Source of the DNA: Timema cristinae
Taxonomy: Eukaryota > Arthropoda > Insecta > Phasmatodea > Timematidae
Reading direction: 5' to 3'
DNA: 64,000 nucleotides
Assembly (NCBI GenBank): GCA_039000515.1
Contig: JBCFYV010011164.1
Span: 51,003,192-51,067,191, forward strand
In this document: positions 7,068-58,206 of the stretch, one piece after another
How positions within the stretch are numbered: the first letter of the stretch is position 1
Layout: the number at the start of each line of letters is the position of its first letter
Translations under genes and position numbers: made by a program
Notes under the pieces: model-generated
What the model was told of the DNA's origin: nothing
The model's database searches: none
The model's input: the letters and a program-made list of their open reading frames with translations, nothing else

Positions 7068-23059
<15,992 letters not shown>

Positions 23060-27721: not shown

Positions 27722-28334
27722 ACAGCTCACTTGCAGGCTTACACCAGAGAAAAATTAAAGTTGTGTTCATATCTTATTTCAAATTCTGAGCGGTAACTAC
27801 TTTTTGGGATCTACGGAATAAATTAACTGTCCTTTGGTATTCTAAAACTTCAATAATTTTTATATAATAGTCTTTTTATCTATCTATTTATTTTTGAAAT
27901 TGATTAGCAGCATTTGTATTCTATTTGGGAAGGTTTGTAGAGATATAACATTTTACTTTAAAATGTTGGTAATAGCCCAAACTCGATAATAAATACCAAT
28001 CCGTCGCTGTGATGCCGGACTTTAACGGTTACTGTGTTCTTTTTAATAAAGTTGTTGTTATGAATGTAAAATTCAAGTTGGTCTGTGAAAGAATAGTGTC
28101 TTGAAGGCCGTACCTACGATATAAACAACATTTTCCGTGTTCTTTGTTGGTAAAGTTGGAATATCTAGAGACAACCGCTAACATATCAAACATTAATTGA
28201 TGGTATCTTGTGGACGCCAGGCTACCATTAGAAGCACAGGTGTGATCCCTACTTAACCTAACTACCCGAGGAACTAAATTTAGTCTATCAAAATAGATTG
28301 CATAATCGCTCCGGTTCATAACGTGGTGGGCGTT

Positions 28335-28787
28335 ATGAACTTCCACGGAGGAACGATGACACAACAGTGTCTAATCTGCGCGGCAGAGTCCCTCACCAAC
28401 TATGTAGATCTGACTCTGGTCACATCTCAGACGACCCAGAGTGAGACTCCGGTGGAGGACAAGTTGAGGAGCATCTTGACGGACAAATGGCGGGAACCAG
28501 ACTCCGACATGGCGATGGTTGTCTGTGTTCCTTGCTTTCAGATGGTGGACCAATTTGACACACTCGAGTCGCAGTTGGTAAACTTGAGGAAGGAGTTGGT
28601 GGAAAAGTATGGAGGCAGCTTTGGTCGAGACAAGATGCCTCCGCCGGCAAAACTGGAGAAACAGCACAGGAAGAGAAGGGGCAGGCCGCCAAAATCCGCC
28701 AACAAGAGTGTACCCAAGATTAAGATTAAAGATCCTGTCAAACCCAAACGGAAATATACAAAGAGGAAGAAGGTTGAAAAGATTATG
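28335..28787 (+). CDS. ZAD zinc-finger gene, exon 1
   Basis: 151 codons holding the ZAD domain and AT-hook, ending '..KVEKIM' at GTAATT. The open frame runs on into the intron for about 36 codons, but the extension is a repeat-rich hydrophobic read-through. ATG 28335 and ATG 28356 are both upstream of the first zinc-binding Cys; neither has an obvious advantage. Confidence 0.82.
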
Positions 28788-30688
28788 GTAATTACATGTT
28801 TGAGTTTGCTTATTTCATGTGTATTCCTCCTTGACAATTTGAGATATTTCTTGTGTGTCCTTGAACAATTTGAGTTTTTTCTTGTGTATCCTTGAACAAT
28901 TTGAGTTTTTACTTGTATAATATCCCAACTTGCAAAGTTTGAACAAGCTTCCTTATATATCTCAATGTTGCACTGTTTTAGCTATTTACAGCAACAAGGT
29001 GTGACAGAAGTTTATCTAGAACATTGAGAAGTTACATGAGGTTATCTAGGGCAATGAGGAGCTATAGGAGGGAATCTAAAGCATTGAGAAGATACAAAAG
29101 AACATACAATATTTGGAAGTTATCTAAAGAAGTTCATGAATTAAGTTTGCAGGCTATGAATATATTGTGCAGCAAGGTTTATTCAATAGAAACATTTCTA
29201 AAGATATTCACACAACTTACACACTAAGTTAGGTTAATTAAAAGTGCAAGCCTCAAATTCAGTAATGATGAGTTTTTTGGCCATGATGGGAATTATACCT
29301 GGAGGCCGGATTCAATAGATTGGACACACTTTTAACTGCTCTAGCGTCAAATCTAAAAATAATTATAGGACCTATTTGCAATACTTTTGTCTACATTGTC
29401 ATATACTATACAGTTAAATCAGGTGGCTTTGGTTGTTTTGCAAAGATATTTCTCCTATTGTGAATCACGGTGTGACAACCAATCTAGAGACAAAAATTAT
29501 CATTGTCCATCTGTACCGACAGAAGTCCCCATAGTTCTTTAAAATCCAAAAGTATATAAAAAAAAACACTGCTTAAAATGGTTGGTTGAAATATTTTACA
29601 TGCCACACCAAATTTACTAACTCTAGATTTACAAGGAATAGAAAGATAAAAAAAACTTAATTTAAACATTTTTCAGAAACTTTTATATTTAGTCCCTAAT
29701 ATCCCCTTTTCTTTTTCATATTACAAATTTATCAAAACAAATTAATAGGTAGACCTGTATACGACATTAAGCCGGTTTAGAATATACTCAACTTAAGAAA
29801 AACAGGCCACACTCATAAACATTAGTGAAAAAATCAGGTATCCATGGTCATAGTCATGTTTCACTGTAGTTGGGGAGATTGTGTGTGTTCTAGGAAGTGG
29901 ACAGTGAATCAGACGCTGACACTGCCTGGGTCCCCGATGACGCAGACAACCAAGACGGGGACTCGTCCCCAGGGCCCAGTCAACACAAGGAGGCAGACGG
30001 GGACCTCAAGAAACGCAAGGCCAGTGAGAATGGTATGCGGGCACGCAAGGAATCCACCAAAGCACGCGCCCAGGTGGCAGCACTCGCGGCTGCAGCGCAG
30101 TCATCGTCGGATGCAGACAACGCGGTGGATAATCCACCAGACATCCCCCTGCAACCCCCACCGCCACCTGAGGAGGAGAAGAACAACAATGTGTATGATG
30201 AGGAGTCGAGTATGTTGGGGCTGAACCCCGGCGAGAAGTTGCGCATGGGAGCCATGAACGAGACGGATGACGGTAACATAACATACGCCTGCTCTTACTG
30301 CGAGGAAATATTTGTTGACATTGGGATGCTTAAGGCGCACGTGCGTGTCCGTCACCGCCCGGAACCTCTCACGACACTCCTTCCTGTCGATATGGGTTTC
30401 GGCAACAAGGTCAACTGTGGTATGCAGCTCTCGGGCGTGACGTCCACCACGGAGCTGGGCAAACCTTTTGTGTGCATATTCTGTGATGGGGCGTTCAAGT
30501 TCAAGAGTAACGTTCTCCTGCACTACAAGGAGAAACATACACCATACAAACCGTTCTCCTGTGTGGATTGCAAGGAGGCGTTTAGGCGCTCAATGGAACT
30601 GTCACGACACAGGGTATACTACTGCCCCTTCAGAAAGAGAAGGGTCCCCAAAAAACGCGGCCGTGAGCCCAAGGTGAAGAAAGAATAA
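28335..30688 (+). CDS. ZAD-type zinc-finger protein with AT-hook (two exons, 415 residues)
   Basis: Exons 28335-28787 and 29894-30688 join in phase 0 (GTAATT donor, TGTGTTCTAG acceptor). The N-terminus has a ZAD-like zinc-binding pattern: C12-x2-C15 and C64-x2-C67, followed by a helical stretch with 'QFDTLESQLVNL'. ZAD domains dimerise, and the family expanded in insects. A basic segment at about residues 115-150 includes the AT-hook core RRGRPPK. The middle is acidic, then Ala-, Pro- and Glu-rich. Three fingers follow: C2H2 at about 274-295 (YACSYCEEIF), C2H2 at about 335-356 (FVCIFCDGAF), and C2HC at about 364-385 (FSCVDCKEAF ... C). The tail is basic (KKRGREPKVKK). It is a likely nuclear DNA-binding regulator; its targets are unknown. 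The start could also be ATG 28356. The orthologue was not identified. Confidence 0.85.
28797..28915. repeat. Short tandem repeat in ZAD gene intron, about 33-bp unit
   Basis: About 3.5 copies of 'cttgaacaatttgagttttt' plus 'cttgtgtatc' begin ten bases after the splice donor. Copies become more regular downstream. Confidence 0.8.
29013..29100. repeat. Tandem repeat in ZAD gene intron, about 29-30-bp unit, three copies
   Basis: Three copies of the pattern 'tatctag.gcattgagaag.ta'. It is open on the plus strand by chance and has no exon signals. Confidence 0.65.
29894..30688 (+). CDS. ZAD zinc-finger gene, exon 2
   Basis: 264 codons ending with TAA at 30686. It begins EVDSESDADTAWVPDD and includes the acidic linker and all three fingers. 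It is notably GC-richer than its surroundings. Antisense open frames here are shadows of its codon bias. Confidence 0.87.
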   Translation, partial: EVDSESDADTAWVPDDADNQDGDSSPGPSQHKEADGDLKKRKASENGMRARKESTKARAQVAALAAAAQSSSDADNAVDNPPDIPLQPPPPPEEEKNNNVYDEESSMLGLNPGEKLRMGAMNETDDGNITYACSYCEEIFVDIGMLKAHVRVRHRPEPLTTLLPVDMGFGNKVNCGMQLSGVTSTTELGKPFVCIFCDGAFKFKSNVLLHYKEKHTPYKPFSCVDCKEAFRRSMELSRHRVYYCPFRKRRVPKKRGREPKVKKE

Positions 30689-33954: not shown

Positions 33955-34640
33955 GAGATTTAGTATTCACACAAGGAAATCGGACATTTAGTCTTCACAC
34001 CTAGGGAAATCAGACATTTAGTCTTCACACCTTGGGAAATCAGACATTTAGTCTTCACACAGGGAAATCAGACATTTAGTCTTCACACAGGGAAATCAGA
34101 CATTTAGTCTTCACACAGGGAATTCGGAAATTTAGTCTTCACACAGGAAAATCAGACATTTAGTCTTCACACAGGGAATTCGGACATTTAGTCTTCACAC
34201 AGGGAAATCGGACATTTAGTCTTCACACAGGGAATTCGGACATTTAGTCTTCACACAGGGAATTCGGACATTTAGTCTTCACACAGGGAATTCGGACATT
34301 TAGTCTTCACACAGGAAAATCGGACATTTAGTCTTCACACAGGGAAATCAGACATTTAGTCTTCACACCTAGGGAAATCAGACATTTAGTCTTCACACCT
34401 TGGGAATTCAGACATTTAGTCTTCACACAGGGAAATCAGACATTTAGTCTTCACACAAGGAAATCAGACATTTAGTCTTCATACAGGGAAATCAGACATT
34501 TAGTCTTCATACAGGGAAATCAGACATTTAGTCTTCATACAGGGAAATCAGACATTTAGTCTTCACACCTTGGGAAAACAGACATTTAGTCTTCACACAG
34601 GGAAATTAGACATTTAATCTTCACACCTTGGGAAAACAGA
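33955..34640. repeat. Minisatellite, about 28-bp unit, about 24 copies
   Basis: Unit with 'gacatttagtcttcacacag' and 'ggaaatca'. Variants with 'cctaggg' or 'ccttggg' in place of 'caggg' change the unit length to 30-31 bp and recur in blocks. No coding or splice context. Confidence 0.95.
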
Positions 34641-35494: not shown

Positions 35495-36838
35495 CGAGGG
35501 TCATCCAGAAAGTAATGTTACAACATTTTTGTAGGATCGAAAAATGCTTGTATTTAATTGAAATTCACGGGATACTTCACAAATATATTAAACTATTTTT
35601 CAACGTAATCGCCGTCGAGATCGAGCCATTTCTGTAGTCGGGGCACCAGCTTTTGTATGCCAGTGTCATAGACCTCTGCCGCCAACTCTTTCAGCCACTT
35701 CTTCACAGCTTCCTCGACCTCCTGATTGTTGGAAAAACGTTTCCCACCCAAAAACTCCTTTAGTTTAGTGAAAAGGTGATAGTCCGAAGGCGCCAAGTCG
35801 GGTGAATAGGGGGTGGTGTGGGTGACAATATCCCATCCAAACAATGTCATCAGTTCCTGTGAAACTCAACGCGGTGTGGGGCCTGGCGTTGTCATACATG
35901 AGGCTGACTCCCCGGCTCAACATTCCCCTTCTGCGGTTCTGAATGGCTTTTCTGAGTTTTTTTAGGGTATTGCAGTAAGCCTCTGAATTAATACTAGTCC
36001 CTTTAGGCATAAAATCCACCAAAAGGACCCCCTTAAGGTCCCAAAAAACAGATGCCATGACTTTTCCAACTGAATGGGTCGTTTTGAACTTTTTGATGGC
36101 TGAGGAAGATGAATGACACCACTGAAGTGATTGTCTTTTGGATTCTGGGGTGTAGTGACACACCCACGTCTCATATTGTGTCACGATAGAGTCCAGAAAA
36201 GCTTCTCCCTCCTGTGCAAAACAATCCAATAATTCATGCGATTTTGACGGTGCTCCAGTGTGAGCATTCTGGGCACCTATCTCGCACACAACTTCTTGTA
36301 ACCAAGTTTTTCCGACACAATATCACCAAGGAGACTTCGAGAAATGTCAGGAAATTTTTTGTGAAAGTCATCAAGCGCCACACGGCGGTCATTTCGCACT
36401 TGTTCTTCAATTTTTTGCACAAGTTTGTCAGAAATCACTGATGGTCTCCCACTCCTTGCCTCGTCGTGAGTATCAGTACGGCCTTCTCTGAACAACCTAA
36501 CCCACTTTGTGTCATGTTGTCGTCTCATCACATCACTACCATAAACTTCCACGAGCTTCTGATGGATATTCACTGATGGATATTCACGGTGGTATTATTC
36601 TGCAAAGTCAAAAAACTGACAACCGCGGCGCGGATCTCGCATGGACGGGAGGTGGCAGGAGCGCGCGACGACCTCTCCATCGGAAGAATTTACTGTGACT
36701 GAAAAAAATGGTCGACAAACACTTGAGACCAAACAAACTGGCCGGTAGGATCCCCCCCCCCCTATACTCCAACTTCGAAACAAAAAATTTCCCCCGGCCT
36801 CAGGAGCCCTTGTAACCTTACTTTCTGGATGACCCTCG
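35495..36838 (-). mobile_element. Mariner element with near-perfect ends and inactivated transposase
   Basis: 28-bp inverted ends starting CGAGGGTCATCCAGAAAGTA at both termini, with one mismatch, flanked by TA. Minus-strand transposase pieces: 36573-36277 (helix-turn-helix region, 'SGRPSVIS', 'FHKKFPDISRSLLGDIVSEK'), 36289-35870 ('FLDSIVTQYETWVCHYTPES', 'MYDNARPHTA') and 35850-35593 ('TPYSPDLAPSDYHLF', 'WLDLDGDYVEK'). The frame shifts at about 36285 and 35860. The first catalytic Asp before 'ETW' is replaced by Tyr; the second (YDNARPH) and third (PSDYHLF) acidic residues remain. The copy is dead but could be mobilised in trans, since both ends are intact. Confidence 0.93.
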
Positions 36839-42194: not shown

Positions 42195-42475
42195 TCAGCA
42201 TGTTCCTGATTTAGAAGGCAGTTGCGAGTCTAGTTTCGGTCGTCGGCGGAGGGTGGGTTCGTCACTAGCCGCAGCCTCCAAGTTGGACCGAGTTGTCTTA
42301 AGAATGTGATTGGTCTTGTGGATCTGTCTGCAGATGGCTCTCTCCATCTGTTTCTTTCTTTGATTGGCAACAGTTAGTTGCACGAGTGTTTCCTCGAGTG
42401 TGCGACGTGTGCGCAACAAACGACGCTTTAGCTCCATGTTCTCCTGCTCCAGGCGAGACTGGTCCTTGGCTTCCC
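42195..42475 (-). CDS. Coiled-coil gene, terminal exon
   Basis: Acceptor TATTCCAG, entering in phase 1 to match the previous exon. 93 codons including stop: 'EAKDQSRLEQENMELKRR', 'LEETLVQLTVANQRKKQM', then 'KTTRSNLEAAASDEPT' and a Ser/Lys-rich end. Clear heptads are broken only near the end. Confidence 0.8.
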
Positions 42476-45400
42476 CTGGAATAGACGCAAACCTCTTCAA
42501 TAATAAAAGGACAGGTTTGATCTTGTTGTGATAGTGACCAGTTGTTTACCCTACTGACAGTTACCAGTGTTGTTACCCGTAGTGACAGTGACCAGTGTTG
42601 TTACCCGTAGTGACAGTGACCAGTGTTGTTACACGTAGTGACAGTGACCAGTGTTGTTACCCGCTAGTGACAGTGACCAGTGTTGTTACCCTAGTGACAG
42701 TGACCAGTGTTGTTACCCGTATGACAGTGACCAGTGTTGTTACCCGTAGTGACAGTGACCAGTGTTGTTACCCGTAGTGACAGTGACCAGTGTTGTTACC
42801 CGTAGTGACAGTGACCAGTGTTGTTACACGTAGTGACAGTGACCAGTGTTGTTACCCGTAGTGACAGTGACCAGTGTTGTTACCCGTAGTGACAGTGACC
42901 AGTGTTGTTACCCGTAGTGACAGTGACCAGTGTTGTTACACGTAGTGACAGTGACCAGTGTTGTTACCCGTAGTGACAGTGACCAGTGTTGTTACCCGTA
43001 GTGACAGTGACCAGTGTTGTTACACGTAGTGACAGTGACCAGTGTTGTTACCCGTAGTGACAGTGACCAGTGTTGTTACCCGTAGTGACAGTGACCAGTG
43101 TTGTTACCCGTATGACAGTGACCAGTGTTGTTACCCGTAGTGACAGTGACCAGTGTTGTTACCTGTAGTGACAGTTACCAGTGTTGTTACCCGTAGTGAC
43201 AGTGACCAGTGTTGTTACCTGTAGTGACAGTTACCAGTGTTGTTACCCGTAGTGACAGTGACCAGTGTTGTTACCCGTAGTGACAGTGACCAGTGTTGTT
43301 ACCCGTAGTGACAGTGACCAGTGTTGTTACCCGTAGTGACAGTGACCAGTGTTGTTACCCGTAGTGACAGTGACCAGTGTTGTTACCCGTAGTGACAGTG
43401 ACCAGTGTTGTTACCCGTATTGACAGTGACCAGTGTTGTTACCTGCCGTGACAGTGACCAGCTGTATTCGACCAGTGTTGTTAGGAGCCTCTAGACTGGA
43501 GAATCTTCCAGGGTCACTCTCAATACCCAGATCTGGAGAGGAGTTGTTCAAGGTGCGAGGGACCCCAGCTGGCACAGTCACCCACAATCTACTACTGCGG
43601 GTCTGCAACATAAACATCCAGGGGTACAGGAAAGGTGGATACAAACACAATATGACTGTTACGAAAAGAACACAGTCCACACCTTACAGGACTGTCACTG
43701 GACAAAGCGGTAAAGGCTGGATATTGAATAAAATTGATCGTTACCACCCAATCCCCTGACCTAGGTTTCTTCTTATCGGAACTCTTCAGAGAAAGTGTTA
43801 AACGCACTTCAGAATTGTGTTTGTTCCCTTTTATGTATTGCTATTCCTATATCTCGTACTTTCTTTGCTATATAACAACACATACCTCAAAAAGTGAATA
43901 GAAGTTTCTTTAAAAAGATATGTTATCTGACTTGGGCACATTTTGCATTCTGTTGTCATAATTATAATTAACAGACTTTGTCACTTTGGAAGATGCCATG
44001 TTGCATCAAAATAGTGAACTGTTTGTAAATATGTGTTAATATTTTGTATTAATGCTTCATTTTATAAAATTCTTTTGTATTTATTTAAAACATTTCAAAA
44101 CCATTTACAAAATAACATTTTTATTTAACCTAACACCAATCAATTGTTCTGAGTCCTATGTCGATGATTTGTACCTGCGTAAAGACAGCCTCATATTCCT
44201 GGTCCTCTGACACGTAGTCGGACATCTCACTGCGTTGGCGACTCAGGATAGGCTGAGACATTGACATAGGATCTTTCAACTCCAAGGAACTGGCTTCGTC
44301 TCCCACCATCTCCAGACCAGAGGATTGACTGCAGGCCTTCGTCAGGCCTAAACAACAAAAACAACTTGTGAGTTGTAGCGTCTCGCTACCCGTTCAGGCT
44401 AGTAAAATGTATGCTAATGTTTCAGGAACGAGGAGGGTTGAATCTAAATGGAAGTGTACTTGAATTTTCATGGTTGTAAATTATAAAACCATTTAGGAAA
44501 ATTGTCCTCAGTCCACCTGGCCAAGATTTGATTATACATCCAGTATGTGAATTGTCCTGCGGGCTGGGACTTCTATTAAATACGCTCAGCAATTCACGCT
44601 GAATGCACAAGTTGGCAATGTTCAGACACAATTGGAAACTGTGGATGTAAGACCTAAGTCGCAACAATTAGTAACGAGGAATTATTGTTCAAAAAGAACA
44701 CTGGTGTTAAAGGAGAGGAATAGCCCCTGATCACCTGAAGTGAGTCTCAATTATTACATCACTATCCAGGTAAGTGGTGGTCTCTGGTGGGACGTTTATT
44801 AAAAGCTAGCACCACAGTCCGAATGTCACGAGATTTGGCTGTTCAGAACTTGGCGAGTAATTACCCAGTACAGTCACTGCCCTCTCAGATCTGAAGAGCC
44901 CAGTCTCAGTCGGTCATATTTTCTCCATTCCAATGCTGCCTCATAATCCCCCAATCTCTTCTCAAGCTGGCCTTTTGCTGTTTCAAGATGGACACCTGGA
45001 ACAATCATACTACCCCTACAATCAGATCACCAGCAGAATACTTGGAATGGATGTTTATAGGGTATATATGCCCGAAAACCCCAAAATGTCAGATATTCTC
45101 ACACCTTGAATTAGTCAATAAAAGATAATCTTGGGACAAGGTCCTGATTCAACTCCTGTGTAGAAAATGTTGATACTATCGGACAAGTGAACAGAAGTCA
45201 ATTAGTTTGTTAAAATAATAATAATAAATCCACCAACAACAGTTACAAATCTTCAACAATAAAAATATATTTTTGATCAATTGTGTTAAAAAGAAAGCTA
45301 AAAATACATTTGTGTTAAATTTCAGCCCTTCTCTTCTGTTATGTACATTACTAATTAACGTCTGCAAGACAAAGATCAACAGTGATCTAATTATCTGTTG

Positions 45401-48400
45401 TGATAACTTGATTTACCAGATTAGAAAGAAGCATTTAAACCATTTTGTTATAAAACATTTACCATCTGATATTAGATGTATAAAGTTTAGTTATATAGAT
45501 ATGCGAGGTGTAACTTTCCCCCCAGCTTAAAACAACCCTGTTTATTGTCTTTGGAAATATGTCATGTATTTGATTTGATTTTGAATGGAGTAGTGGACTT
45601 GGCACAGCTCTAAATCTGTTTATTGAACATGACCTGTGTTGGGAGTGTTAAGCTGTACAGCTGCTCCACACTAACCTGTATGTACATCTGCTCCACACTA
45701 ACCTGTCTGTACATCTGCTCCACACTAACCTGTCTGTACAAGCTGCTCCACACTAACCTGTCTGTACAGCTGCTCCACACTAACCTGTCTGTACATCTGC
45801 TCCACACTAACCTGTATGTACATCTGCTCCACACTAACCTGTCTGTACAGCTGCTCCACACTAACCTGCCTGTACATCTGCTCCACACTAACCTGTCTGT
45901 ACAGCTGCTCCACACTAACCTGTCTGTACATCTGCTCCACACTAACCTGTCTGTACAGCTGCTCCACACTAACCTGCCTGTACAGCTGCTCCACACTACC
46001 CTGTCTGTACATCTGCTCCACACTAACCTGTCCTGTACATCTGCTCCACACTAACCTGTCTGTACAGCTGCTCCACACTACCCTGTCTGTACATCTGCTC
46101 CACACTAACCTGTCTGTACAGCTGCTCCACACTAACCTGTCTGTACAGCTGCTCCACACTAACCTGTCTGTACAGCTGCTCCACACTAACCTGTCTGTAC
46201 AGCTGCTCCACACAACCTGTCTGTACAGCTGCTCCACACTAACCTGTCTGTACAGCTGCTCCACACTAAACCTTCTGTACATATGCTCCACACTAACCTG
46301 TCTGTACAGCTGCTCCACACTAACCTGTCTGTACAGCTGCTCCACACTACCCTGTCTGTACATATGCTCCACACTAACCTGTCTGTACAGCTGCTCCACA
46401 CTAACCTGTCTGTACAGCTGCTCCACACTAACCTGTCTGTACAGCTGCTCCACACTAACCTGTCTGTACAGCTGCTCCACACTACCCTGTCTGTACATAT
46501 GCTCCACACTAACCTGTCTGTACAGCTGCTCCACACTACCCTGTCTGTACATATGCTCCACACTAACCTGTCTGTACAGCTGCTCCACACTAACCTGTCT
46601 GTACAGCTGCTCCACACTAACCTGTCTGTACAGCTGCTCCACACTAACCTGTCTGTACATCTGCTCCACACTAACCTGTCTGTACAGCTGCTCCACATCT
46701 CGCTCAAGTCCTCTCTTCTCTCTGGACATCTCAGTCCCTCGACCTTCCAGCCTGCGCACATCTTGCTCTAGACGCAACTTGTCACTGGACAGCCTTGTAC
46801 GCTCAAGTGCAGTCTGAGAAGTCTCCAGAGCTACCTGGTTTAATCTCCTCTCCAGTTCAGACTGGCGTTCACGGGACTCTCTTTCGGTGTTGGCGAGTTT
46901 GCGGTGGAGCTCACTCTCTTGGAGCTGTGACACAAGAACTAACACATTGACTCACCTTCCTGGAGCTTAGTGAGTAACATTCAGTACTCCTCTTCCTAGT
47001 AGAGGATGTCCCTCGTGATCTGTATGACCTTGGAGTCCAACAACCTTAAGGCTTCATTGTTTGATTGAAAAATGGTTACTTCCAAACTTAGCCAATCCCC
47101 CCCCCCCCCCCCCCCACACACACATACAGTGGTTGATTTCTAAAAATTAGGTTTTAAATTTAAACTTCAAAAGACTTGTTCTTAAGCCATTAATTTATTC
47201 TAAAAACAGAAGAAAATGTTTTCAAATGTATCATAATGTGATTGTGTCTTAATGTTTTTCAATTAAATTTAATGCAAATTCTCACCAGATAATTAATCTA
47301 ATTTTTTTTTTTTTACTACTAGTTTTACTATTCACACGGGAATCATAGGAGCGATTAGAAATTTAAAGTCAGAGATTACACATAACAAATGTTTTAAATT
47401 TTTACAGATGTATTTTGAATTAAAAATACACATAGGCTATTATACGTGATTTGGCTATTAAATAACCGAATTGATGCTCTAAAAAATTGTATTTACAAAA
47501 TTACTCAATGAACATGTTATCATCTCCAATGTAGTCCCCTCCCCGATCCCCACACCTCACCATACGAATCTTCCTCTGTCGGAAACAATGTTTCAGGTCC
47601 TTTTCTGAGAGGCTATTCATGAGCTTCGTTGCTTTTTCCTTCACAGCATCAACAGACTCGAAACAGGTTCCTTTTAGTGCGGACTTGATCTTCAGGAACA
47701 GAAAAAAGTCACAGGGGGCTAGATCAGGTGAGTAAGGAGGATGTTCCAACACCGGAATCTTGTGCTTCGTCAAAAACCTCTGGATAGACAGCGCTTTATG
47801 TGCTCCTGCGTTGTCCTGGTTAAGAACCCACAAGCTGTTCTTCCACATTTCAGGTCTTCTTATGTGTTCACGAAGGTTGTCAAAACCTCCTTATAGTAAA
47901 CCTGGTTAACATTCTGACCTTCAGGTGGCCAAACAATTTGAACAATTCCTTAGATATAAAACAAAACTATCATCATTGCTTTGAATTTGGACTTGCTCAT
48001 CTGTGCTTTCTTTTGTCTCGGTGGACTGTGACTCTTCCAATGCATGTATTAGCGCTTAGTTTCAGGGTCGAACTGGAAAAAACCACGATTCGTCACAAGA
48101 TATCACATTTTCTAAAAAGTTTGGATCATTTTCGATGTTATGAAGGATGTCAGCACAAATGTTCATTCGAGTCTCCTTTTGCTCAAGAGTGAGCAGTTTT
48201 GGCACCATTTTGGAGCAAACTTTTTTAATGTGTAAGTTTTCATGTAAAGTTTGTAGAACAGTTTCCTTATCGATATTAACTAAGTCAACAATTGCTCGAA
48301 TGCTCAGGCGTCGATTTTTTTCGAATGATTTCACCAACTTTTTCAATACTACCATCTGTTTTTGATGTGCGAGGACAGCCGGGGCGAGGATAGTCTTCAA

Positions 48401-51400
48401 TCTGTTTCCTCCCTCCTTAAATTTTTTAAGCAAATCAAACACTTGAGTAAGAGATAAACACTGATCACCATAAACGTCCTTTAACAAGTTGTATGTTTCT
48501 GTAGTGGATTTCCCAAGTTTTACAAGAAACTTCACGTTGCTCACCTTTTACACTCAACATAATTCTGACAGAGCTCAGGTACATGGTCCACTTCGAACAA
48601 AGGCTATGACCTTGAGATTTGGAAGGTAGAGGAGATAATAACATAGATCAATAGCTGGCCCTGCTGGTTGTTGCCGAGACCTCAGGTAAGTGGCAAAAAA
48701 ATGAGCCCGGTTATTTAGTAGTCACACCTCATATACATAATTAAAAAAAAAATGATTGTCCATTTTAGAAGCAACTACACAGTCGTTCCAGGTTTTCATC
48801 ATATTCAATGCCTCTAGACCTTTCCTTACTCTGAATGTCTGTGGCAGGATGCCATCCTGAAACTATCCATGAGTCAACATAGAGGGAGGGATTAAATAAA
48901 CAAAGAGGGGGTCCAGTGATTCTTATAAATAAAATACCAAAGATTAAAAAATGTTCTTAGTGATGTCATAATCAAATTAATCTGGGAGAAAGCTCTCTCG
49001 CATTCACTGGAAGATATAGCAACTGACTTGATTATATTCTTCGATAAAACAAGACTGTTCAGAAATGTCTTACTATATATATATATATTATTTTTTACCA
49101 GTTTTTTATGACTATTAATTTTATCAAGTTAACAATCTTCAAATCTTGTTCACTCATTCTCTTCTCAATTAATTGCTCCAATGCTTCAAAGAACTTCTCA
49201 GGATCTAAGGGATCATTATTGTTGCGTCCTTCCCCTTTATGAAGAAGAACTCCCACAAAATTAAAATTTTGCATTGCTTCTAGGGCCGTGGTAAGATAAG
49301 TACCTGGTACTGATTTTCTACTTTCAAACAAAGAGACTGTTAATTTAAATTTTCCGTTTGCAAAGCCTAGCTCAACTCATATCCTGTAACGCATCATACA
49401 TTAAGACAAGATCTAAAATGAAGTTTGCATCGGTAATTTTACTCGGTGAGACATCTTAAGATGAGAGAAAACAAGATTGTGTATTAGGGACTTTTAGGTT
49501 TTGTTTGCGAAGAATGATACAGCTATTTCCTCATTTTTATAAAGGTTTGCAAGAAAATTCGCCAAACCTTTATTTATGAAGCGGTTATTTTGATGTTTCT
49601 ATCATGTTAATTCACATGTACTGTTCCTTAATAATAATGAATTAATACAATTTAATTAAAATTATATGATTCCTAAATTTTAGGAGTCTGCGAGCTTGAG
49701 TTTTTTCATTCGAGTCGAGTATTTCTAAAAGCTCGCGAGTTCGAGCCGAATATATTCATGATTTTAAAATGTTAAAAAAGTATATTTAAATACATGTTCT
49801 TAAAATATGAATGACATTTATTTTTATAAAGAGTAAATACGTTTGAAAAAAGAAAAAAAGTTAAATAATGGAGATATTGATTTTTAAATTAAAAATAACA
49901 CCTATAAAACACAATTTAAAGATAAGAACAACACTCAAAATAAAAATCTATTAAAAAAATAATTTAAATGGTTTCACACTCATGTCTTAAGGACATTAAA
50001 ACTACACTAACGATTAAAAAAAAAGTTAATAAAAATAATAATCGCAGATGGCTTGGAAAAATTTAACAAGACAGTGTAGAAACACTGTACAGTGATGTAA
50101 AGTAAGTGATAGTGAAGGAAGCCAACCTGAAAGGATAGTTAGGTTAAGATTAGATAGTAAAACACACTTCTCTCTTCATGTCTTCACTAACTTTTACACT
50201 TTCCACTTCTTCAAAACTTCCACAGTTGCACACCAGACCTAGTTTGAATTTTCGGGAATATTACTTTTTCATTGATGTCTTATCATATGAAAAATAAATA
50301 TTTCCTAAAATATAAAACAATGTGCAACTGTGGAAGTTTGAAAAAGTGGTAAGTGTAAGAAGAAATAGAGAAGTGTTTGTTTATATCCAGACCTAACCTA
50401 ACTATTCTTTCAGTTTGGCTTCCTCAACTATCACTTTACATTATTGTAGAGTGTTTCTACACTGTCTTGATAAAAAGTAGAAATGGGCCACAAGAATCTT
50501 TCACCTCATAAACAAAGCATAAATTTTGATTTTTGAATTCAAAAGTTACTAAGTTAGGCCTACTTGAAAAACAAAACTTAATCTGTAATCATTATTTTGT
50601 CTGACAAAAGAGATTTACATGAATAAAATCTTTGTTTAAAAAAAAGTAATAATTGTTAGGTGTAGAAAATTTAACATGCCTAATATTGTACCCTTCTAGG
50701 CCTACAGGAAACGTGGACTAGACCGTTTCATCACATGCTCACTTCTAAAACTTTCACCTCACGAACAATCTTGTAAATATTTTAATAAACACATCAAAAC
50801 TCTTCATAAACTGAAAATCAAAACTAGAATTACAAATAAACTCGAAATAAATTAAACAAATTATGGCTTTTTTTTTTAACAGAAATAAGAACACATTACA
50901 CATGATACAAAGTCAGCCGCCATGACATATATGTTTACTCGCCAGCAGCCAGAGTGATGATTAAATAGACATGACTGTAATTATTACTACTCAACTTGTT
51001 TTAATCATCTACAACTATGCAAAGAACTCCAATTTATTGCATACGATCCTTCAGTTAGATGTTTTGTTGAGTTTCATGAAAAATAAATACTGTCAACAGT
51101 CAGACAGCAATAAAACTGTTTATTTACTCCAACTGGCCTACACGTATCGTATATCGATTATTTGTTTAAAATCGATTCAGGTAATCTGATCACTTAGTGC
51201 TATCGAGTTTTAAGAATCAAATAACGACTGCTAATTCATCATTAGTTTTTAAATTGATTTTAACTAAGGGTTCATTATTTTTTCAAATATGTTAATGAAG
51301 TTATTGTAAAAATATTCGTATGCAGTCTTGCCTAATAAAATAGGAATGTATTCTCAAAAATCGATATATCACAAGAAAATAATAATGATAATATATACAT

Positions 51401-54400
51401 ATTTATACATTATTGTGTTCACTATTTCCAATGTATGTTTATTGTTAAGCATGTTGTTTTAGTATTTTTTTTTATTATCTGTTTGTATTTTTATTTTAGC
51501 TTTCTTATCAAAATAAATGACGATACCTCAAGATGATTAAAGTTGATCAAAAGGTAACTTGGCCTAATCTGTTTGATTATTTCACAAGTTTTTTTTTTTT
51601 AGAAACTTGACTCATTCTATCAAGACACTCAAATTTTGATTGATTTTGTTTCCAAACAATAATATGAGTCTAGATTGTTTAATTTGGCTGCATTTTAACC
51701 TGTATTTTGAAGGGTTGGTTGGGGTTGATTAAAATTGTAATCATGATTGAAATAAATCTAGGCCTATATTCTGTAATGTAGGTATATTTGTAGATCATTA
51801 AAATTTCTAACAATTTGCTAGGATTTGTATTTGAGATTCGAAAATAAAATGTAGATTCGGATTCAATAAATAGTGGATTCAACCCATCTCTAATAAAAAG
51901 TTAATAAAATCGACATTAATAAGTTAATATTTCCCAAAAATATGCTTCAGTAACTTGATTTACCCTATAATAAAATGTAGGAATCATAAACAAAAAAATT
52001 TGAAGTGTTTCGTATCTTGTTTATTATTCCTTAGTGTAATCGTATGCGCAGTTGCACATGCTTATTGTACAGGCTCTCGTTAGACATTATCTTATTGAGA
52101 AATTTATTTCAATTCAATTTTTAATGGTTATAAAAGTTTATGCTAATACTTTAAAATAAAAATAATGACTAACATAATATTTCTAGCAAATAATATGAAA
52201 TAGTAAAGGCTTTTTTAATTTAAATGTGGTAAGTTTGGTAAGATTTGTATTGCAATAAATAAGATCAACATTGATTTTAAACAGGTTAACCAACATAATT
52301 CTTTAACTAAATAATTACTAGACTAGAGCTAGTTTTGTTGCTAAAAATATTAAATAATACCAATTTTAAATATCTTAAGTTTGAAAACATTTAATATAAT
52401 AATGTATTCTTGATATTACATTTTTAGTTGACATAAATTATTATTTTAGAGAGGGACCAGGTAAAAATAGTAAAAAGAATCATTAAATTATTTAAAAATC
52501 TTCTTAGCTATTTTTATTTTCATTGCTTTGTCAAGTGAACAACTTCAATAAAGGATAATTCAAAATGGACGACAGTACTGAATAAATTTACCGTCAAAAG
52601 TGGTTTTAAGGTTCTATTACGTTATTAATGTGAAAATTGAAATTAATTTTTAACAATCTGTTAAGTAACCGAATGATCTTAAGTGAAATGCTGATATTAT
52701 CTTAATTAAATAGCCTGTGCTTACTATTGTGTTTTAAATATGGATTATTAAGTAAAACAAGTAGAAGCTTGAAAATGATGAGCTCACAAAACTTTCAATC
52801 TCAACCTCAATGCTTAAGATACGAGCGCGGAATACGAGTACTTGCAGCCCTACTAAATTTTAAAATTTCATATTTTTTTTTTCAACACTAAGGCTAATTA
52901 ACATATCTTTAAAAAGTTATATAGGCCTATACATTTAACTATTATTTGGTTGTAGTGCATTTAGTTTTATACAAGCAATTAAAGTTTGAATATATATGAT
53001 TATAAATAGGTATTAAAGGAATTTTTATTTTATATGCTACATTAGATATTTTTGGGCCACAATTGCTTACCTTACAGCAAGATTTATTATATTGCTTACC
53101 TCATGAATAAATATTTAGGCCTACACATAATGACTGCGTTTTTCAAAAAACCTCTTATAATGAATAATTTCATATAGTTCTTTTTACATATTATATAAAT
53201 GTATATATTTATTAGGCCTAGTTACTTACATTGGTAAAGAAATATTTTCATTCACGTGACATAACATGAAAATCTAAATAGTATATTTTTCTAAACTCAG
53301 AACCATTTAACCCACACATTTGAAAACTGTTTACAAAACTATTTATATCAATATAAATGTTAGCCACACTTATGTTTTTCCATGCAGCTTGTATGTAAAC
53401 CAGCGTTGCACTTAGCACATTGAGTACGTGACGATCCGCCATTGTAAATGTACTAAACTCCCAGTTCCAATAACAACTATTTACGGTTGATTTTTGTTGT
53501 TAGCCTTATATAAAATAATAGAGGGAAATGTTCTCTTTCCAGTGATATGGCACTACTACACTATCTATCAGGTAAAGTGAGAACTAGTGTAAGTCTAGAG
53601 AGCCAACCGTATCAGCTCTGGCACTTTTAGCGATAGTAGGCAGAGCCGATCAGATCGGCTCGTGGCATTAAAAGGGTTAATGTCCTTGCTTGGACCTAGC
53701 ACGAAGTCTTTTAAAGTCTGAAAACATAGAATCAATCTAACAAAATTTAAATATCGTAATGTGTAAAAGTAGCAATCATGAATTTTAATGCTAGCTTCAG
53801 AAAAAAGAAAAAAAAAAGCATTAATACTGCATATATCTGAATCTAGGACAAGTTTTTCCCCCCAAATTTGTAGCTTCAAAATCTAGGGTCGTCTTAAAAT
53901 TGCAAACTAAGGAATGGGTTAGGCGTTCATCAAAAAATAACATTTTACATCTTTATTTAATATTAATACAATAGTGCAGAGTTGCTATTTATTTTAAGGG
54001 ATTTTATCCATTTTCACAGATTTTAAAGGTATAACACAGAGCACAGGATATTGATTATTTTCAAGGCTTTTTAGGCTATTTTTTTAAGGTTATTGTTAAA
54101 ACCAACTACCTAGTTGTGGTACAATACGATACTCGATAAGCATAATATCGACTGGTATCGCAATAATTGATACTAACACTAAAAATCTTGATACTCAACA
54201 CTGAACTTCTCCAATTGGTTGGGGCTAGTGATGGGCATAATCGAATTGAATTTTATTTAATTGTGCTGTTTTTGATTACTTTTCCAATTACTTCATTACA
54301 GATATTAAAAATTCAGCCATTCACAATCAAATCAAAATAGATTTAAAAACAAATGACAAATTATCAAAGTGTTGCGCATTTAGGTCTTAAAACTTTGCCT

Positions 54401-57400
54401 ACATAGCTAGTGCTTGTCAAGTAAAACGTGATGAGAAAACTCAAATTGATTTTAAACAAACAATTGATAATACATAGAGTTTATTAAACAATTTTAGCAA
54501 TGCCAAACTTGAGTTTTAATTGTGAAACTCCACAAAATATCTAACTTTTGAATATTAACAAGTAAATTATTATCTTTGATTAGATGTTCTGTTTTGAAAT
54601 AAGAATAAGATGTTAGTTTAACTATCACTAATTTTTTACACTTGGCTATCAAGATGGCTGACTTTTACGGTAATTCATAGCAGACGTGTTTATCGATTAG
54701 CTTTTTTGTAAACATGTGAAATGTGTTTATCTTCTTCAGTTTGTTGTATATTTGTCCTTTGATTTTTTACTTTAACTCTTTACTCTATATTATATTTTCT
54801 GTATATCATTGTGAAAATGTCACATTTTAGAAGCAAGGGTGTTAATAGTCGAGTCCAATGTTCGTATTTAGGGGGAGTAGCATATGTATGTGACTCAGAT
54901 TTTCCCTAATGAGTATCATTTTGTCATAATAAAAATTAACTTCTCATTGTTTTATGGAACTTTTTCAAAGTTAACCTTCTTATGCCAAAGCAATATTTGT
55001 GACAAAAGATAAATTCCTTAACAATTTTGCAAGCATAATTAGATTTTGAGTCAACATAGGTGTTTGTTTTGTATATAAAACAAATTTGTTAACATTACAA
55101 AATAAGTCTACCATAATTATGTTCTTCATTAATGATAAAATAAATAACAACTACATAAAATCTATTCATAACCAATGAAAAAATGGGGGTCATTTTGGAT
55201 TCGGGTGAATAAGGTATCCTCAAAACACTAATTTTTTCCCGGTTTATACCTATAAAATAAGAAACAATAGATAATATCCGTATAAACGGCAGCCCTGGTA
55301 TAGCGCCATCGCTAGTGTCCCCATGTTGAAAATTATATTGCATTTGACAAATTACAAAGAAATTGTGTTTATTTAGAAAAAAAACAGCTTGAATATGTGT
55401 CATTCGCATGAAAACAGTAGAAATCGTGTAAAAATGTGAGTTTTGTTTGTCCCTACTAATAACCGACAACATATTTAATCTTTGTAAAATTTCTAGCCAA
55501 ACAATTTATCTCCATTTATTACCGGTCTTACGATCAAGTGTTTGCATCACCTTGAACTTGTCATGAGCCTCCTGTACTCTGGCATCTGCCTCCACTCGTA
55601 TCCTGTCTGCCTCCTCTTTCTGACAATGTATCCCTGCCTCAAACTGTTCCTTGAGCCTCTCTGCTTCCTGGAGTTTCTTGTCTACCTCCTGGAGCCTCTT
55701 TGAGGCACTTTCTTCTGCATCTCGGAGCTTACTTTCCAGAGAAGATTCCTTCGCCTGCAACAATAAAACACAAGAGCTACAATGTGAATAGCGGCAGTAA
55801 CAAAGTAACGCTAGCTCCGAGTGTTACTACCTGTATCCTAGTAAGTGACTAGTGGCAGTAACAAAGTAACGCTAGCTACGAGTGTTACTACTTGTATCCT
55901 AGTATGTAACTAACAGCAGTAACAAAGTAACGCTAGCTCCGAGTGTTACTACCTGTATCCTAGTATGTAACTAACAGCAGTAACAAAGTAACGCTAGCTC
56001 CGAGTGTTACTACCTGTATCCTAGTATGTAACCAATGGCAGTAACAAAGTAATGCTAGTTCCGAGTGTTACTACCTGTATCCTAGTAGGTGACTAGCAGC
56101 AGTAACAAAGTAATGCTAGTTCCGAGTGTTACTACCTGTATCCTAGTAGGTGACTAGCGGCAGTAACAAAGTAATGCTAGCTCCGAGTGTTACTACCTGT
56201 ATCCTAGTAGGTGACTAGCGGCAGTAACAAAGTAATGCTAGTTCCGAGTGTTACTATCTGTATCCTAGTAGGTGACTAGCGGCAGTAACAAAGTAACGCT
56301 AGCTTCGAGTGTTACTACCTGTATCCTAGTAGGTGACTAGCGGCAGTATCAAAGTAACGCTAGCTCCGAGTGTTAGTACTTGTATCCTAGTATGTAACCA
56401 ATGGAAGTAACAAAGTAACGCTAGTTCCGAGTGTTACTACCTGTATCCTAGTAGGTGACTAGCGGCAGTAACAAAGTAACGCTAGCTTCGAGTGTTACTA
56501 CCTGTATCCTAGTAGGTGACTAGCGGCAGTATCAAAGTAACGCTAGCTCCGAGTGTTAGTACTTGTATCCTAGTATGTAACCAATGGAAGTAACAAAGTA
56601 ACGCTAGTTCCGAGTGTTACTACCTGTATTTTAGTAGGTGACTAGCGGCAGTAACAAAGTAACGCTAGTTCCGAGTGTTACTACCTGTATCCTAGTAGGT
56701 GACTAGCGGCAGTAACAAAGTAACGCTAGTTCCGAGTGTTACTACCTGTATCCTAGCATGTGACTAACAGCAGTAACAAAGTAACGCTAGCTTCGAGTGT
56801 TACTACCTGTATCCTAGTAGGTGACTAGCGGCAGTATCAAAGTAACGCTAGCTCCGAGTGTTAGTACTTGTATCCTAGTATGTAACCAATGGAAGTAACA
56901 AAGTAATGCTAGTTCCGAGTGTTACTACCTGTATCCTAGTAGGTGACTAGCGGCAGTAACAAAGTAACGCTAGCTCCGAGTGTTACTACCTCCAAGTCTT
57001 GTATCCTTGTGTTGGCTCTACTGAGCGCCTGCTCTGTCTCCTGTAGTCTCATCTCCAGTGCTACTATCTGGTGGTGAAGTTCTAAACTTTGTTGGTTGGC
57101 CTGGTTCTCCATCTCAAGGAGAAGACACTTCCTTTCCAAGACCTCGTTGTCACTCTCGTGAAGTCGGCTCGTCAGGGTGGCCAACTGCTGCTCTAATGAG
57201 GAAACGGTGTCACGAGACAGCTGTACACACAGGGTACCACCATTAACATAACTTAGTTGTGAGCATCAGGGACTTCCTGATGTTACCAGGTTGGAGCTTG
57301 CCTTAAATAATGTTACACTTGAAATACCTTGGATTAAAGCAATGATAAAGCTACCTGGCTGTCTCATGGTGTGTCTGTCGACTTGAGCTGTCTCCAAGTC

Positions 57401-58206
57401 ATGTCTGTTCCTACCTTGAGCTGTTCCTCCAAGTGTGTCTGTTCTTACTTGAGCTATTTCTTCAAGTCATATCTGTTCTTACCTTGAGCAATTCTCCAGT
57501 TGTCTGTTCCTCCTTGAAGTGTCTTCAAGTTGTCTGTTCCTACTTGAGCTGTTCCTCAAGTTGTCTGTTCTACTCGAGCTGTTCCTTCAAGTTGTCTGTT
57601 CCTACTGAGCTGTTCTTCAAGTTGTCTGTTCCTACCTTGACTTCTCATGTCTGTTCCTACCTCGAGCTGTTCCTCCAAGTCATGTCTGTTTCCTACCTTG
57701 AGCTGTTCCTCCAAGGCATGGTTGTAGCTGGTCGCATCGTCCAGTCTGTCAGTGACCTCCTTGACACCGTCCATGACCCTGGACACCTCCCCGGCCCCAC
57801 AGCTGCACTGAGTACCCCCTCGAGGGCCACTCTCATCTGGTCATTGTGACGCAGGGAGCTCTCGAGCTTCTCACGCTGAGCCGGATCTCTCGGAGCAGTT
57901 CCGCTGTGTTCACTGGTCCGCTCTGTAGGGAATGTCAACCCATCACTGCCTATTCTAAGGTACAGGGCATATACAACTGCCACTGCCTAGTGAAGTAATA
58001 ACTGACCTGTACACTGGTTGATTTGTCCATCATAGGAGGCCCCTCACTAGTGTTCACACTGGTTTCCCTGGTAAGAGGACGAGTCTGTTGCGATGCCCAC
58101 TGATGAAACACACTTAGCTCAGACTTGAGGGCATCATTGATCTGTTCAAGACCGCGCACCTTGGTCACCAGCCTTCTCACGTCCCCTTCCGCACGACTGC
58201 GCTTAC
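42195..58206 (-). CDS. Long coiled-coil protein, centrosomal or ciliary-rootlet type (3' portion of gene)
   Basis: Nine minus-strand exons: 58206-58007, 57920-57697, 57220-56990, 55754-55532, 46924-46676, 44995-44878 (weak), 44347-44175, 43602-43443 and 42475-42195. Most translate into Glu/Lys/Arg/Gln/Leu heptad sequence; between coils lies 'SPDLGIESDPGRFSSLE'. The C-terminus reads 'ELKRRLLRTRRTLEETLVQL' and 'NQRKKQMERAICRQIHKT', then a basic tail. The composition fits long coiled-coil scaffold proteins of centrosomes or rootlets (centrosomin/CDK5RAP2-like or rootletin-like are candidates); none can be chosen by eye. Phases chain from the first to the fifth exon (the D-E join requires the alternative phase-1 acceptor near 46939) and across the last three, but not from the fifth to the seventh, so exons are missing. 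The 5' end is not in view. Four introns start with donor-spanning minisatellites. Confidence 0.72.
42540..43442. repeat. Minisatellite, 28-bp unit, about 32 copies, starting at a splice donor
   Basis: On the minus strand the unit is GTAACAACACTGGTCACTGT plus CACTACGG. It starts with the first intronic base after exon 43602-43443. The exon's own last 42 nt contain the same unit with an inserted 14 nt. Each copy repeats '(C)ACGG|GTAACA', a donor-like site. The array fills nearly the whole intron to within about 65 nt of the next acceptor. Occasional 27-bp units occur. Confidence 0.95.
43443..43602 (-). CDS. Coiled-coil gene, Ser/Pro linker exon
   Basis: Acceptor TGTTTATGTTGCAG, phase 0. Encodes TRSSRLWVTVPAGVPRTL, 'NNSSPDLGIESDPGRFSS' and 'LEAPNNTGRIQLVTVTA', ending in phase 1 at GTAACA. 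The last 14 codons are themselves part of the repeat that fills the following intron. Confidence 0.75.
44175..44347 (-). CDS. Coiled-coil gene, acidic Ser-rich exon
   Basis: Acceptor TTGTTGTTTAG, enters in phase 1; donor GTACAA, phase 0, fitting the next exon. Contains 'SSGLEMVGDEASSLELKD', 'MSQPILSRQRSEMSDYVS' and 'EDQEYEAVFTQ'. The Ser/acid clusters look like kinase sites. Confidence 0.72.
44375..44560 (-). mobile_element. SINE type B fragment
   Basis: Tail complement 'cgtctcgctacccgttcagg', then 'aaatggaagtgtacttgaat' and 'aaaaccatttaggaaaat'. The head is lost. Confidence 0.55.
44878..44995 (-). CDS. Coiled-coil gene, weakly supported exon
   Basis: Acceptor GATTGTTCCAG, then in phase 1 'VHLETAKGQLEKRLGDYE' and 'AALEWRKYDRLRL', good heptad sequence. 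The only donor before the in-frame stop is GTGACT, phase 2, which fits neither neighbour. The exon is plausible by composition, but its borders are doubtful. Confidence 0.45.
45654..46675. repeat. Minisatellite, 27-bp unit, about 38 copies, starting at a splice donor
   Basis: On the minus strand the unit is GTTAGTGTGGAGCAGCTGTA plus CAGACAG. It equals the first six to seven intronic bases (GTTAGTG) joined to the last 20 exonic bases of exon 46924-46676. Every unit ends CAG|GTTAGT, a usable donor. As 27 is a multiple of three with no stop, the frame stays open, with nine-residue repeats VSVEQ(L/M)YRQ, far into the array. Variants (ATG for CTG, CATATG) recur in order, indicating block duplications. 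Confidence 0.97.
46676..46924 (-). CDS. Coiled-coil gene, fifth exon seen
   Basis: 83 codons from acceptor CTTGTGTCACAG to a CAG|GTTAGT donor: 'LQESELHRKLANTERESRER', 'QSELERRLNQVALETSQT', 'LRLEQDVRRLEGRGTEMS', 'REKRGLERDVEQLYRQ'. Strong heptads. An alternative acceptor 15 nt upstream (GTGTTAG) would enter in phase 1, which fits the previous exon seen. Confidence 0.8.
46990..47440. other. Intronic AT-rich DNA with a C run
   Basis: C(19) at about 47098-47116 is followed by a CA repeat. Nothing else was recognised. Confidence 0.5.
47443..48733 (-). mobile_element. Second mariner-type element, decayed
   Basis: 28-bp ends (47441-47468 and 48708-48735, both including the flanking TA) share 'ctattaaataaccg' / 'ctactaaataaccg', about 70% alike overall. 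Minus-strand transposase: 48544-48062 with 'LVKLGKSTTETYNLLKDVYG', 'LSLTQVFDLLKKFKEG' and 'VISCDESWFF', and 47848-47501 with 'LNQDNAGAHKAL' and 'PPYSPDLAPCDFFLF'. All three catalytic Asp are visible, but frameshifts and stops separate the two halves. It lies in an intron of the coiled-coil gene, in the same orientation. Confidence 0.9.
48770..49400 (-). pseudogene. hAT-type transposase C-terminal fragment
   Basis: Minus-strand frame 49331-49095 with 'FESRKSVPGTYLTTALEAMQ' and 'EKFFEALEQLIEKRMSE', then at about 49030-48960 'SSSECERAFSQINLIMTS', the hAT dimerisation-domain signature (SECERxFS.IN.I), then 'NLWYFIYKNHWTPSLFI'. Stops interrupt it and no ends were found. It belongs to a different hAT subgroup from the element at 7586. 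Confidence 0.75.
50066..50470. mobile_element. Fold-back MITE, about 165-bp inverted arms, TA flanks
   Basis: Arms 50066-50235 and about 50315-50470 are inverted ('caagacagtgtagaaacact', 'agttaggtta', 'acttccacagttgcaca'), with scattered mismatches and small gaps. TA lies on both sides (50064-50065 and 50471-50472), as in Tc1/mariner-derived MITEs. No coding sequence. Confidence 0.85.
50473..55500. other. Long AT-rich intron sequence of the coiled-coil gene
   Basis: No exon with matching phase and no transposon was recognised. The palindrome TAGGCCTA is conspicuously frequent at 50.5-53.2 kb. Short open frames (for example 55095-55472) have neither domains nor splice context. Confidence 0.5.
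55532..55754 (-). CDS. Coiled-coil gene, fourth exon seen
   Basis: Acceptor TTTTATTGTTGCAG, phase 0: 'AKESSLESKLRDAEESASKR', 'LQEVDKKLQEAERLKEQF', 'EEADRIRVEADARVQEAH', 'DKFKVMQTLD', then donor GTAAGA in phase 1. A continuous charged coiled coil. Confidence 0.83.
55785..56989. repeat. Minisatellite, about 61-bp unit, about 20 copies, starting at a splice donor
   Basis: On the minus strand each unit runs GTAGTAACACTCGGAGCTAG, then 'cgttactttgttactgccgc', then 'tagtcacctactaggataca' plus 'g'. It starts at the donor of exon 57220-56990. 'AGGATACA(A)G' just before the junction also occurs in the exon end (AAGGATACAAGACTTGGAG). The array fills the intron to about 30 nt before the next acceptor. 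Sub-types recur with a period of about 180 bp, so trimers were also duplicated. Confidence 0.96.
56990..57220 (-). CDS. Coiled-coil gene, third exon seen
   Basis: 77 codons between acceptor GTGTGTACAG and donor GTAGTA, phase 0 on both sides: 'LSRDTVSSLEQQLATLTSRL', 'HESDNEVLERKCLLLEME', 'QIVALEMRLQETEQALSR', 'ANTRIQDLE'. Confidence 0.83.
57395..57696. repeat. Degenerate minisatellite, about 35-bp unit, about 8 copies, starting at a splice donor
   Basis: On the minus strand units read GTAGGAACAGACATGACTTG plus GAGGAACAGCTCAAG. The second part is the last 15-19 nt of exon 57920-57697. Copies vary by deletions and are the most decayed of the four donor-spanning arrays. Confidence 0.88.
57697..57920 (-). 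CDS. Coiled-coil gene, second exon seen, with one frameshift
   Basis: Using the acceptor ...CTACAGAG it reads in phase 0 'RTSEHSGTAPRDPAQREKLE', 'SSLRHNDQMRVALEGVLS'. Near 57795-57810 the frame must shift by one base to continue 'GEVSRVMDGVKEVTDRLDD', 'ATSYNHALEEQLK' to donor GTAGGA, phase 0. The shift lies in a G/C run (gtggggccgggg), so a base-calling error is as likely as a mutation. Confidence 0.7.
58007..58206 (-). CDS. Coiled-coil gene, first exon seen
   Basis: Acceptor TTTTTGGTCCCAG, enters in phase 1: 'KRSRAEGDVRRLVTKVRGLE', 'QINDALKSELSVFHQWAS', 'SVNTSEGPPMMDKSTSVQ', then donor GTCAGT in phase 0. The phase-1 entry means at least one more exon upstream. Confidence 0.78.

What the first reader, a model, noticed from the sequence alone, without database searches (positions are those of the whole stretch)
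42540..57696. Four introns of one gene begin with minisatellites that amplify the 5' splice site
In the minus-strand coiled-coil gene, introns after exons ending at 57697, 56990, 46676 and 43443 each start with a tandem array of different sequence (about 35, 61, 27 and 28 bp). In every case the unit spans the exon-intron junction: the last 10-28 exonic bases plus the first intronic bases, including GT. The donor is thus repeated about 8, 20, 38 and 32 times. Unrelated sequences with the same architecture, four times in one gene, argue for a mechanism acting at donors (for example R-loop or transcription-linked slippage, or selection for decoy donors) rather than chance. The effect could be splice-site choice or intron growth.
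Basis: partly seen in the sequence, partly recalled or inferred. Interest (0 to 1): 0.88.

Follow-up and report, generated by a model that had tools for sequence, protein, structure and literature searches.

The report
Splice-donor minisatellites in insect centrosomin
In a stick-insect gene that is likely centrosomin, four introns open with short DNA units repeated about 10 to 38 times, most copies carrying the intron's start signal, which is likely a side effect of fast-growing tandem repeats filling short introns in a repeat-rich genome rather than a device acting on splicing.

Summary
The observation mostly holds. Four of the eight introns I could model in the window's minus-strand gene begin with tandem arrays of different sequence (units about 35, 61, 27 and 28 bp; 10, 20, 38 and 33 units) at donors 57696, 56989, 46675 and 43442. 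Three arrays clearly carry exon tail; the 61-bp array only the last base or two. The gene is likely centrosomin (Cnn_1N exon 30 kb beyond the window, E 2.9e-21), the species likely Timema. A fifth array of the gene starts at a donor and runs into the next exon. A donor-specific mechanism is not well supported: the 264 kb around the gene is 14.7% minisatellite; strong donors are not enriched in units (9 of 42 arrays, 7.6 in shuffles); donor bases are not specially conserved; GC skew is not shared; with array and intron lengths fixed, closeness to donors has p 0.026 (9 arrays). Best reading: arrays grow in short introns, and those overlapping a donor are likely tolerated because the first donor is likely used. 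Amphioxus 'mirages' and the human IFI6 minisatellite are precedents. The genome-wide test did not complete.

The parts
57381..57708 (-). array 1, about 35-bp unit (TRF 30-36), 10 units; matches the last 24 nt of exon B
57697..57922 (-). exon B (coding; two frame changes, each fitting one lost base, against the predicted T. monikensis protein P0006)
55784..56991 (-). array 2, 61-bp unit, 20 units; starts at the donor of exon C and nearly fills intron C-D
56990..57220 (-). exon C
55551..55754 (-). exon D
45653..46697 (-). array 3, 27-bp unit (22 exon-like + 5 intronic nt), 38 units; stays open in the exon's frame for 316 codons
46676..46924 (-). exon E
   Evidence: found once in the genome
42528..43461 (-). 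array 4, 28-bp unit, 33 units; nearly fills intron H-I
43443..43602 (-). exon H
42195..42475 (-). exon I, last coding exon with stop
58007..58206 (-). exon A; the 84-nt intron after it has no array
44865..44995 (-). exon F (weak model: frame broken in the window)
44175..44347 (-). exon G

Best explanation
Four minisatellites of different sequence sit at or across donors of one gene, likely centrosomin, and they likely arose as ordinary tandem duplications in short introns of a minisatellite-rich genome, kept because the first donor is likely still the one used. Shown: the arrays, the exon tails in three of them, the density of other arrays nearby, and that intron C-D without its extra copies would be 90 nt and intron H-I 80 nt, close to the array-free 84-nt intron A-B. 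Inferred: in so short an intron a unit of 28-61 bp has little room and must overlap either the donor or the branch-point and acceptor region; a duplication over the donor leaves the exon and its first donor intact and the extra copies fall into the intron, so it is nearly neutral and can expand by slippage or unequal exchange. A duplication over an acceptor is riskier but possible, as the fifth array shows. The main effect would be intron growth; the repeated donors are by-products that could occasionally be used.
For: Arrays and exon overlap. Introns stripped to one unit: 193, 90, 684 and 80 nt. 42 arrays of 4 or more copies cover 14.7% of the 264 kb around the gene; 3 arrays, 4.4%, in four other 10-kb stretches of the same contig. 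No enrichment of strong donors in units, no donor conservation and no shared skew, no pattern in predicted openness of the first donor. Conditional placement p 0.026 on the donor side and 0.12 for the nearest exon. Predicted T. monikensis proteins join exons at the first donor at 3 of the 4 arrays: B-C and C-D in P0006, H-I in P0001. Read-through from arrays 2 and 4 meets a stop after 17 and 10 codons, so use of later donors there would damage the protein.
Against: Geometry alone gives a joint probability of only 0.006 that all four span the donor; intron E-F, 684 nt when stripped, is the hardest case with a factor of 0.04, and B-C (193 nt) was not minimal either. The donor-side excess is nominally significant. 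P0001 and P0006 are predictions, not transcripts; P0006 also takes in sequence outside the exons at both ends, and neither covers exon E's junction. P0001 reads VTVTTG where the window reads VTVTAG just before the H-I junction, and TTG is what the array unit would give; I cannot say whether this is an assembly collapse or exchange between array and exon.
Confidence: 0.6

Rival explanations
1. A mutational process acting at donors (transcription-linked slippage, R-loops, U1-bound nascent RNA) starts minisatellites there.
For: 4 of 13 window arrays begin within 30 nt of a donor, never reached by uniform placement in 200,000 trials; donor-side excess p 0.026 over 9 arrays; 0 of 9 window acceptors have a near repeat.
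Against: No enrichment of donors in 42 arrays; no shared GC skew; a fifth array spans an acceptor; three neighbouring arrays start after, not across, the donor.
Confidence: 0.15
2. Selection keeps many donors as backups or decoys, or for regulated choice of donor; in array 3 each further donor would add nine residues (consensus VSVEQLYRQ).
For: Most copies keep strong donors; array 3 stays open for 316 codons, and 27 of the 35 further donors reached before the stop add a multiple of three bases; the human IFI6 minisatellite is reported to give alternative donors.
Against: Donor bases are not more conserved than the rest of the unit in any of the four arrays; arrays 2 and 4 stop early.
Confidence: 0.1
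3. The introns themselves, or their 5' ends, were made by tandem duplication of exon tails, as in models of intron gain (for Drosophila: PMC2891723, section 10 read).
For: Units of arrays 1, 3 and 4 hold much exon-tail sequence, and exon H matches the unit over positions -41 to -6.
Against: In the four window introns the acceptor is not part of the repeat; array 2 is almost wholly intronic. Intron age was not tested.
Confidence: 0.08
4. Assembly artefact: repeated copies inserted or inflated by the assembler.
For: Exon B holds two frame changes against P0006, each fitting one lost base, so this sequence may have consensus errors.
Against: Units differ by substitutions, and a run of three variants of array 2 recurs in the same order three times; many arrays of other sequence lie nearby.
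Confidence: 0.05

Closest known systems
'Mirage' minisatellites of amphioxus (Adh3, globin BflGb6 and BflGb9)
   Same: Tandem repeats spanning exon-intron boundaries in several genes, many units carrying splice signals, splicing reported as not disturbed (PMC3087553 section 16, passages).
   Different: Here in an insect; four arrays at donors and one from donor into the next exon in one gene; up to 38 copies against 3-6 in BflGb6.
Human IFI6 (6-16, G1P3) minisatellite that supplies multiple splice donors (Turri 1995)
   Same: A minisatellite at an exon end whose units carry donors; the citing paper says two downstream repeat units serve as donors (PMC4526556, introduction and reference passages; the 1995 paper itself was not read).
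   Different: Use of later donors is untested here, and in arrays 2 and 4 it would truncate the protein.
Internal tandem repeats at exon-intron boundaries of human paralogs in segmental duplications
   Same: Minisatellites of about 30 bp at exon-intron boundaries, with intron elongation (PMC2812944, passages).
   Different: That study reads them as forming novel introns in recent paralogs; here exon E has one match in the genome, and whether the introns are old was not tested.

Membership tests
amphioxus-type mirage | tandem repeat whose unit spans an exon-intron boundary | tested here: met
   Clear for arrays 1, 3 and 4; array 2 has 1-2 exonic bases plus a match no better than chance.
amphioxus-type mirage | both donor and acceptor boundaries are affected | tested here: met
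   Fifth array 88526-89579 (L004) runs from the first intronic base into exon U5; no array of the TRF list lies across the other 18 of 19 acceptors that I placed in this gene.
amphioxus-type mirage | regular splicing is not disturbed | tested here: inconclusive
   Predicted T. monikensis proteins join at the first donor at 3 of 4 arrays; no transcripts.
amphioxus-type mirage | length instability between haplotypes | not testable with these tools
   One assembly only; no relatives held.
IFI6-type donor minisatellite | more than one copy serves as donor | not testable with these tools
   No RNA data.
IFI6-type donor minisatellite | units carry a usable donor | tested here: met
   GT in register in 92 of 102 units; commonest copies at dG -7.3 to -9.2, 14 copies of arrays 1, 2 and 4 clearly weaker. 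Usable is judged by U1 pairing alone.
intron gained by tandem duplication | the duplication supplies both donor and acceptor | tested here: not met
   The four window arrays end 29-657 nt before the acceptor.
centrosomin (Cnn) | Cnn motif 1 | tested here: met
   Pfam Cnn_1N E 2.9e-21, 75.9 bits against a cut-off of 28.5, on an exon at 94.3 kb in window coordinates (L005). That it belongs to the same gene as the window's exons is inferred from strand and order.

The most novel reading that the evidence does not exclude
Splice donors are recurrent birthplaces of minisatellites in stick insects: a donor-linked process repeatedly copies the exon tail and donor, so that introns grow from their 5' ends and genes gain ladders of ready donors, one of which (27 bp, in frame) could lengthen a centrosomal coiled coil nine residues at a time.
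Probability: 0.12. Interest if true: 0.82.

Novelty: new member of a known kind. Interest (0 to 1): 0.42.

Why it matters
It extends boundary-spanning minisatellites, reported in the papers I found for amphioxus and human genes, to an insect gene with several at once. It also shows that a donor-centred reading must be tested against the plain consequence of long arrays in short introns. If a donor bias survived a matched genome-wide test, it would name a new route of intron growth.

Tried and rejected
Rootletin as the gene: my first guess from the coiled coil, dropped after the Cnn_1N match. Donor conservation within units: none. R-loop skew: not shared. RNA structure hiding the later donors: first donors rank 3 of 10, 10 of 20, 16 of 38 and 30 of 34 in predicted openness, no pattern. 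Donor motif enrichment in 42 arrays: none. Exon E plus array 3 as a protein query: no hit at E <= 0.001. Left out of the placement test: arrays whose intron I could not bound on both sides (94392-94607, 121133-122609) and the two (85641-86665, 87550-88056) in a 20-kb gap that may hide exons.

Literature: ten searches, all used, of an open-licence library. In the listings shown (20 of 23, 15 of 30, all hits in the others) I saw no title or abstract reporting donor arrays in Timema or another insect. Passages only were seen of PMC3087553, PMC4039745 (C. elegans minisatellites in introns of multiply spliced genes), PMC4526556, PMC2572611, PMC2915984, PMC12783039, PMC11691646 (Timema douglasi) and PMC2812944; abstract, outline and section 10 of PMC2891723.

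The genome-wide pattern count (three spaced AGGTRAGT against a dinucleotide-matched control) could not be run: every pattern request did not complete.

Full report
What is there. TRF finds four arrays at the places given. On the minus strand I built exons A to I by eye, with GT after each of the eight exons A to H and AG before each of the nine. The donors of exons A, D, F and G have no near repeat. Exon F is a weak model (frame broken).

Species and gene. Predicted proteins of Timema monikensis match: P0001 at 99% over 85% of one query, P0006 at 100% over 61% of another. P0006 also takes in sequence outside the exons, of which one stretch of 61 residues is 100% identical to the window and another of 51 is 84% identical. 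So the window likely comes from that species or a close one. It lies at contig C7598:51003192-51067191 of a 1.29-Gb assembly. I fetched 150 kb beyond its high end and 50 kb beyond its low end. An exon at 94.3 kb in window coordinates matches Cnn_1N, E 2.9e-21, so the gene is likely centrosomin. Further exons, placed by eye, lie at 94.0-88.4 kb and 68.0-66.0 kb. With those of the window this makes 18 donors and 19 acceptors; a 20-kb gap (88.3-68.0 kb) may hide more.

Anatomy of the arrays. In register there are 10, 20, 38 and 34 units, the last one not a real copy. GT is kept in 92 of 102 units; the commonest copies pair well with U1, while 5 of 10, 5 of 20 and 4 of 34 copies in arrays 1, 2 and 4 are clearly weaker. 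The exon part is clear in arrays 1 (24 nt), 3 (22 nt) and 4 (gapped, over 36 nt). In array 2 it is one or two bases plus a match of 11 nt that 134 of 2000 random 60-mers equal. The four units are of different sequence, with weak likeness in three of six pairs.

Is it more than chance? Placed at random over the window, 13 arrays would give 0.05 donor starts and never four in 200,000 trials. Counting near repeats instead, 4 of 8 donors and 0 of 9 acceptors have one, against 11.1% of random positions and 13.7% of random GTs, binomial 0.007-0.016. The first null is too harsh: arrays of 328-1208 bp sit in introns of 476-1680 nt, so an edge must lie near a splice site. With array and intron lengths held fixed, for 9 arrays in introns whose two exons I could identify (6 in centrosomin, 3 in the next gene), donor-side closeness has p 0.026 and closeness to the nearest exon p 0.12. 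A simple duplication geometry gives 0.006 for all four spanning the donor. The finding was also chosen because it is striking. A weak donor excess may remain; I cannot say more from one locus.

Surroundings. 42 arrays of 4 or more copies (period 15-130) cover 14.7% of the 264 kb. Four other 10-kb stretches of the contig hold 3 such arrays, 4.4%, so the region is richer than that small sample. A fifth array of the gene, 79 bp x 13.7 at 88526-89579, starts at the first intronic base and ends about 20 nt inside the next exon, so an acceptor is hit as well. In the coiled-coil gene on the plus strand, three arrays start 21, 47 and 71 nt after donors without covering them.

Tests of the proposed mechanisms. 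Donor bases are not conserved beyond the rest of the unit, and GC skew is +0.22, -0.05, +0.47 and -0.14. Strong donors (dG -7 or lower) occur in 9 of 42 consensus units against 7.6 in dinucleotide shuffles, and in 6 of 38 against 6.9 without the four; array 1's consensus does not pass this cut. Predicted openness does not favour the first donor.

How it likely works. Stripped to one unit, introns C-D and H-I are 90 and 80 nt, like the array-free 84-nt intron A-B; B-C and E-F would be 193 and 684 nt. In the two short ones a duplicated block of 28-61 bp would largely have to overlap the donor or the 3' signals. Overlap with the donor is harmless if the first donor is used, as predicted proteins imply at three junctions. 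The array then expands freely and the intron grows. That the first donor is used, and that the introns were short before, are inferences.

Known relatives. Amphioxus mirages are tandem repeats of exon-intron boundaries, at both ends of exons (PMC3087553, passages read; the 2002 paper it cites is not held). Human IFI6 has a minisatellite with several donors (PMC4526556, passages; the 1995 paper was not read). Human paralogs in segmental duplications have repeats at boundaries too (PMC2812944, passages). What is new against these is the host group, the number in one gene and the copy numbers.

Limits. No RNA, no second individual, no genome-wide count. Exon borders rest on splice consensus, frame and predicted proteins. 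Exon B shows two frame changes that look like consensus errors, so single-base gaps between units should not be trusted.

Noticed in passing
88526-89579 in window coordinates (L004, beyond the window): Fifth boundary array of the same gene, 79 bp x 13.7, filling an intron from its first base to about 20 nt inside the next exon.
   Followed up: partly
43443-43602 and 42195-42475 against P0001: P0001 reads VTVTTG where the window reads VTVTAG just before the exon H-I junction; TTG is what the array unit would encode. Either assembly collapse or sequence exchange between array and exon.
   Followed up: partly
57697-57922: Exon B holds two frame changes against P0006, each fitting one lost base, which suggests consensus errors in this assembly.
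   Followed up: partly
19624-20293 and 132644-133482 (the latter in L008): Nearly the same 37-bp unit, on opposite strands, at two loci (65 aligned bases of the doubled units with one mismatch); the first lies in sequence that looks like a retroelement (recalled), so the minisatellite may travel inside it.
   Followed up: partly
12462-12977: Minus-strand open frame with a PPESPIP-like repeat of seven codons (12528-12915), apparently a coding tandem repeat ending near a donor-like site.
   Followed up: no
21060-21190: Minus-strand exon-like stretch with a sub-threshold match to Rap1 Myb (E 0.017), perhaps the same gene as 17503-18714 and 12462-12977.
   Followed up: no
28323-30688: Plus-strand zinc-finger-like gene with a sub-threshold zf-AD match (E 0.00026); small repeats in what looks like its intron do not touch the donor.
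   Followed up: partly
35765-36820 and 47520-48544: Broken mariner-like transposase frames (recalled resemblance).
   Followed up: no
33958-34626: 28-bp array of 23.5 copies; on the minus strand some first copies read AAG|GTGTGA after a short acceptor-like site. No gene evidence there.
   Followed up: no
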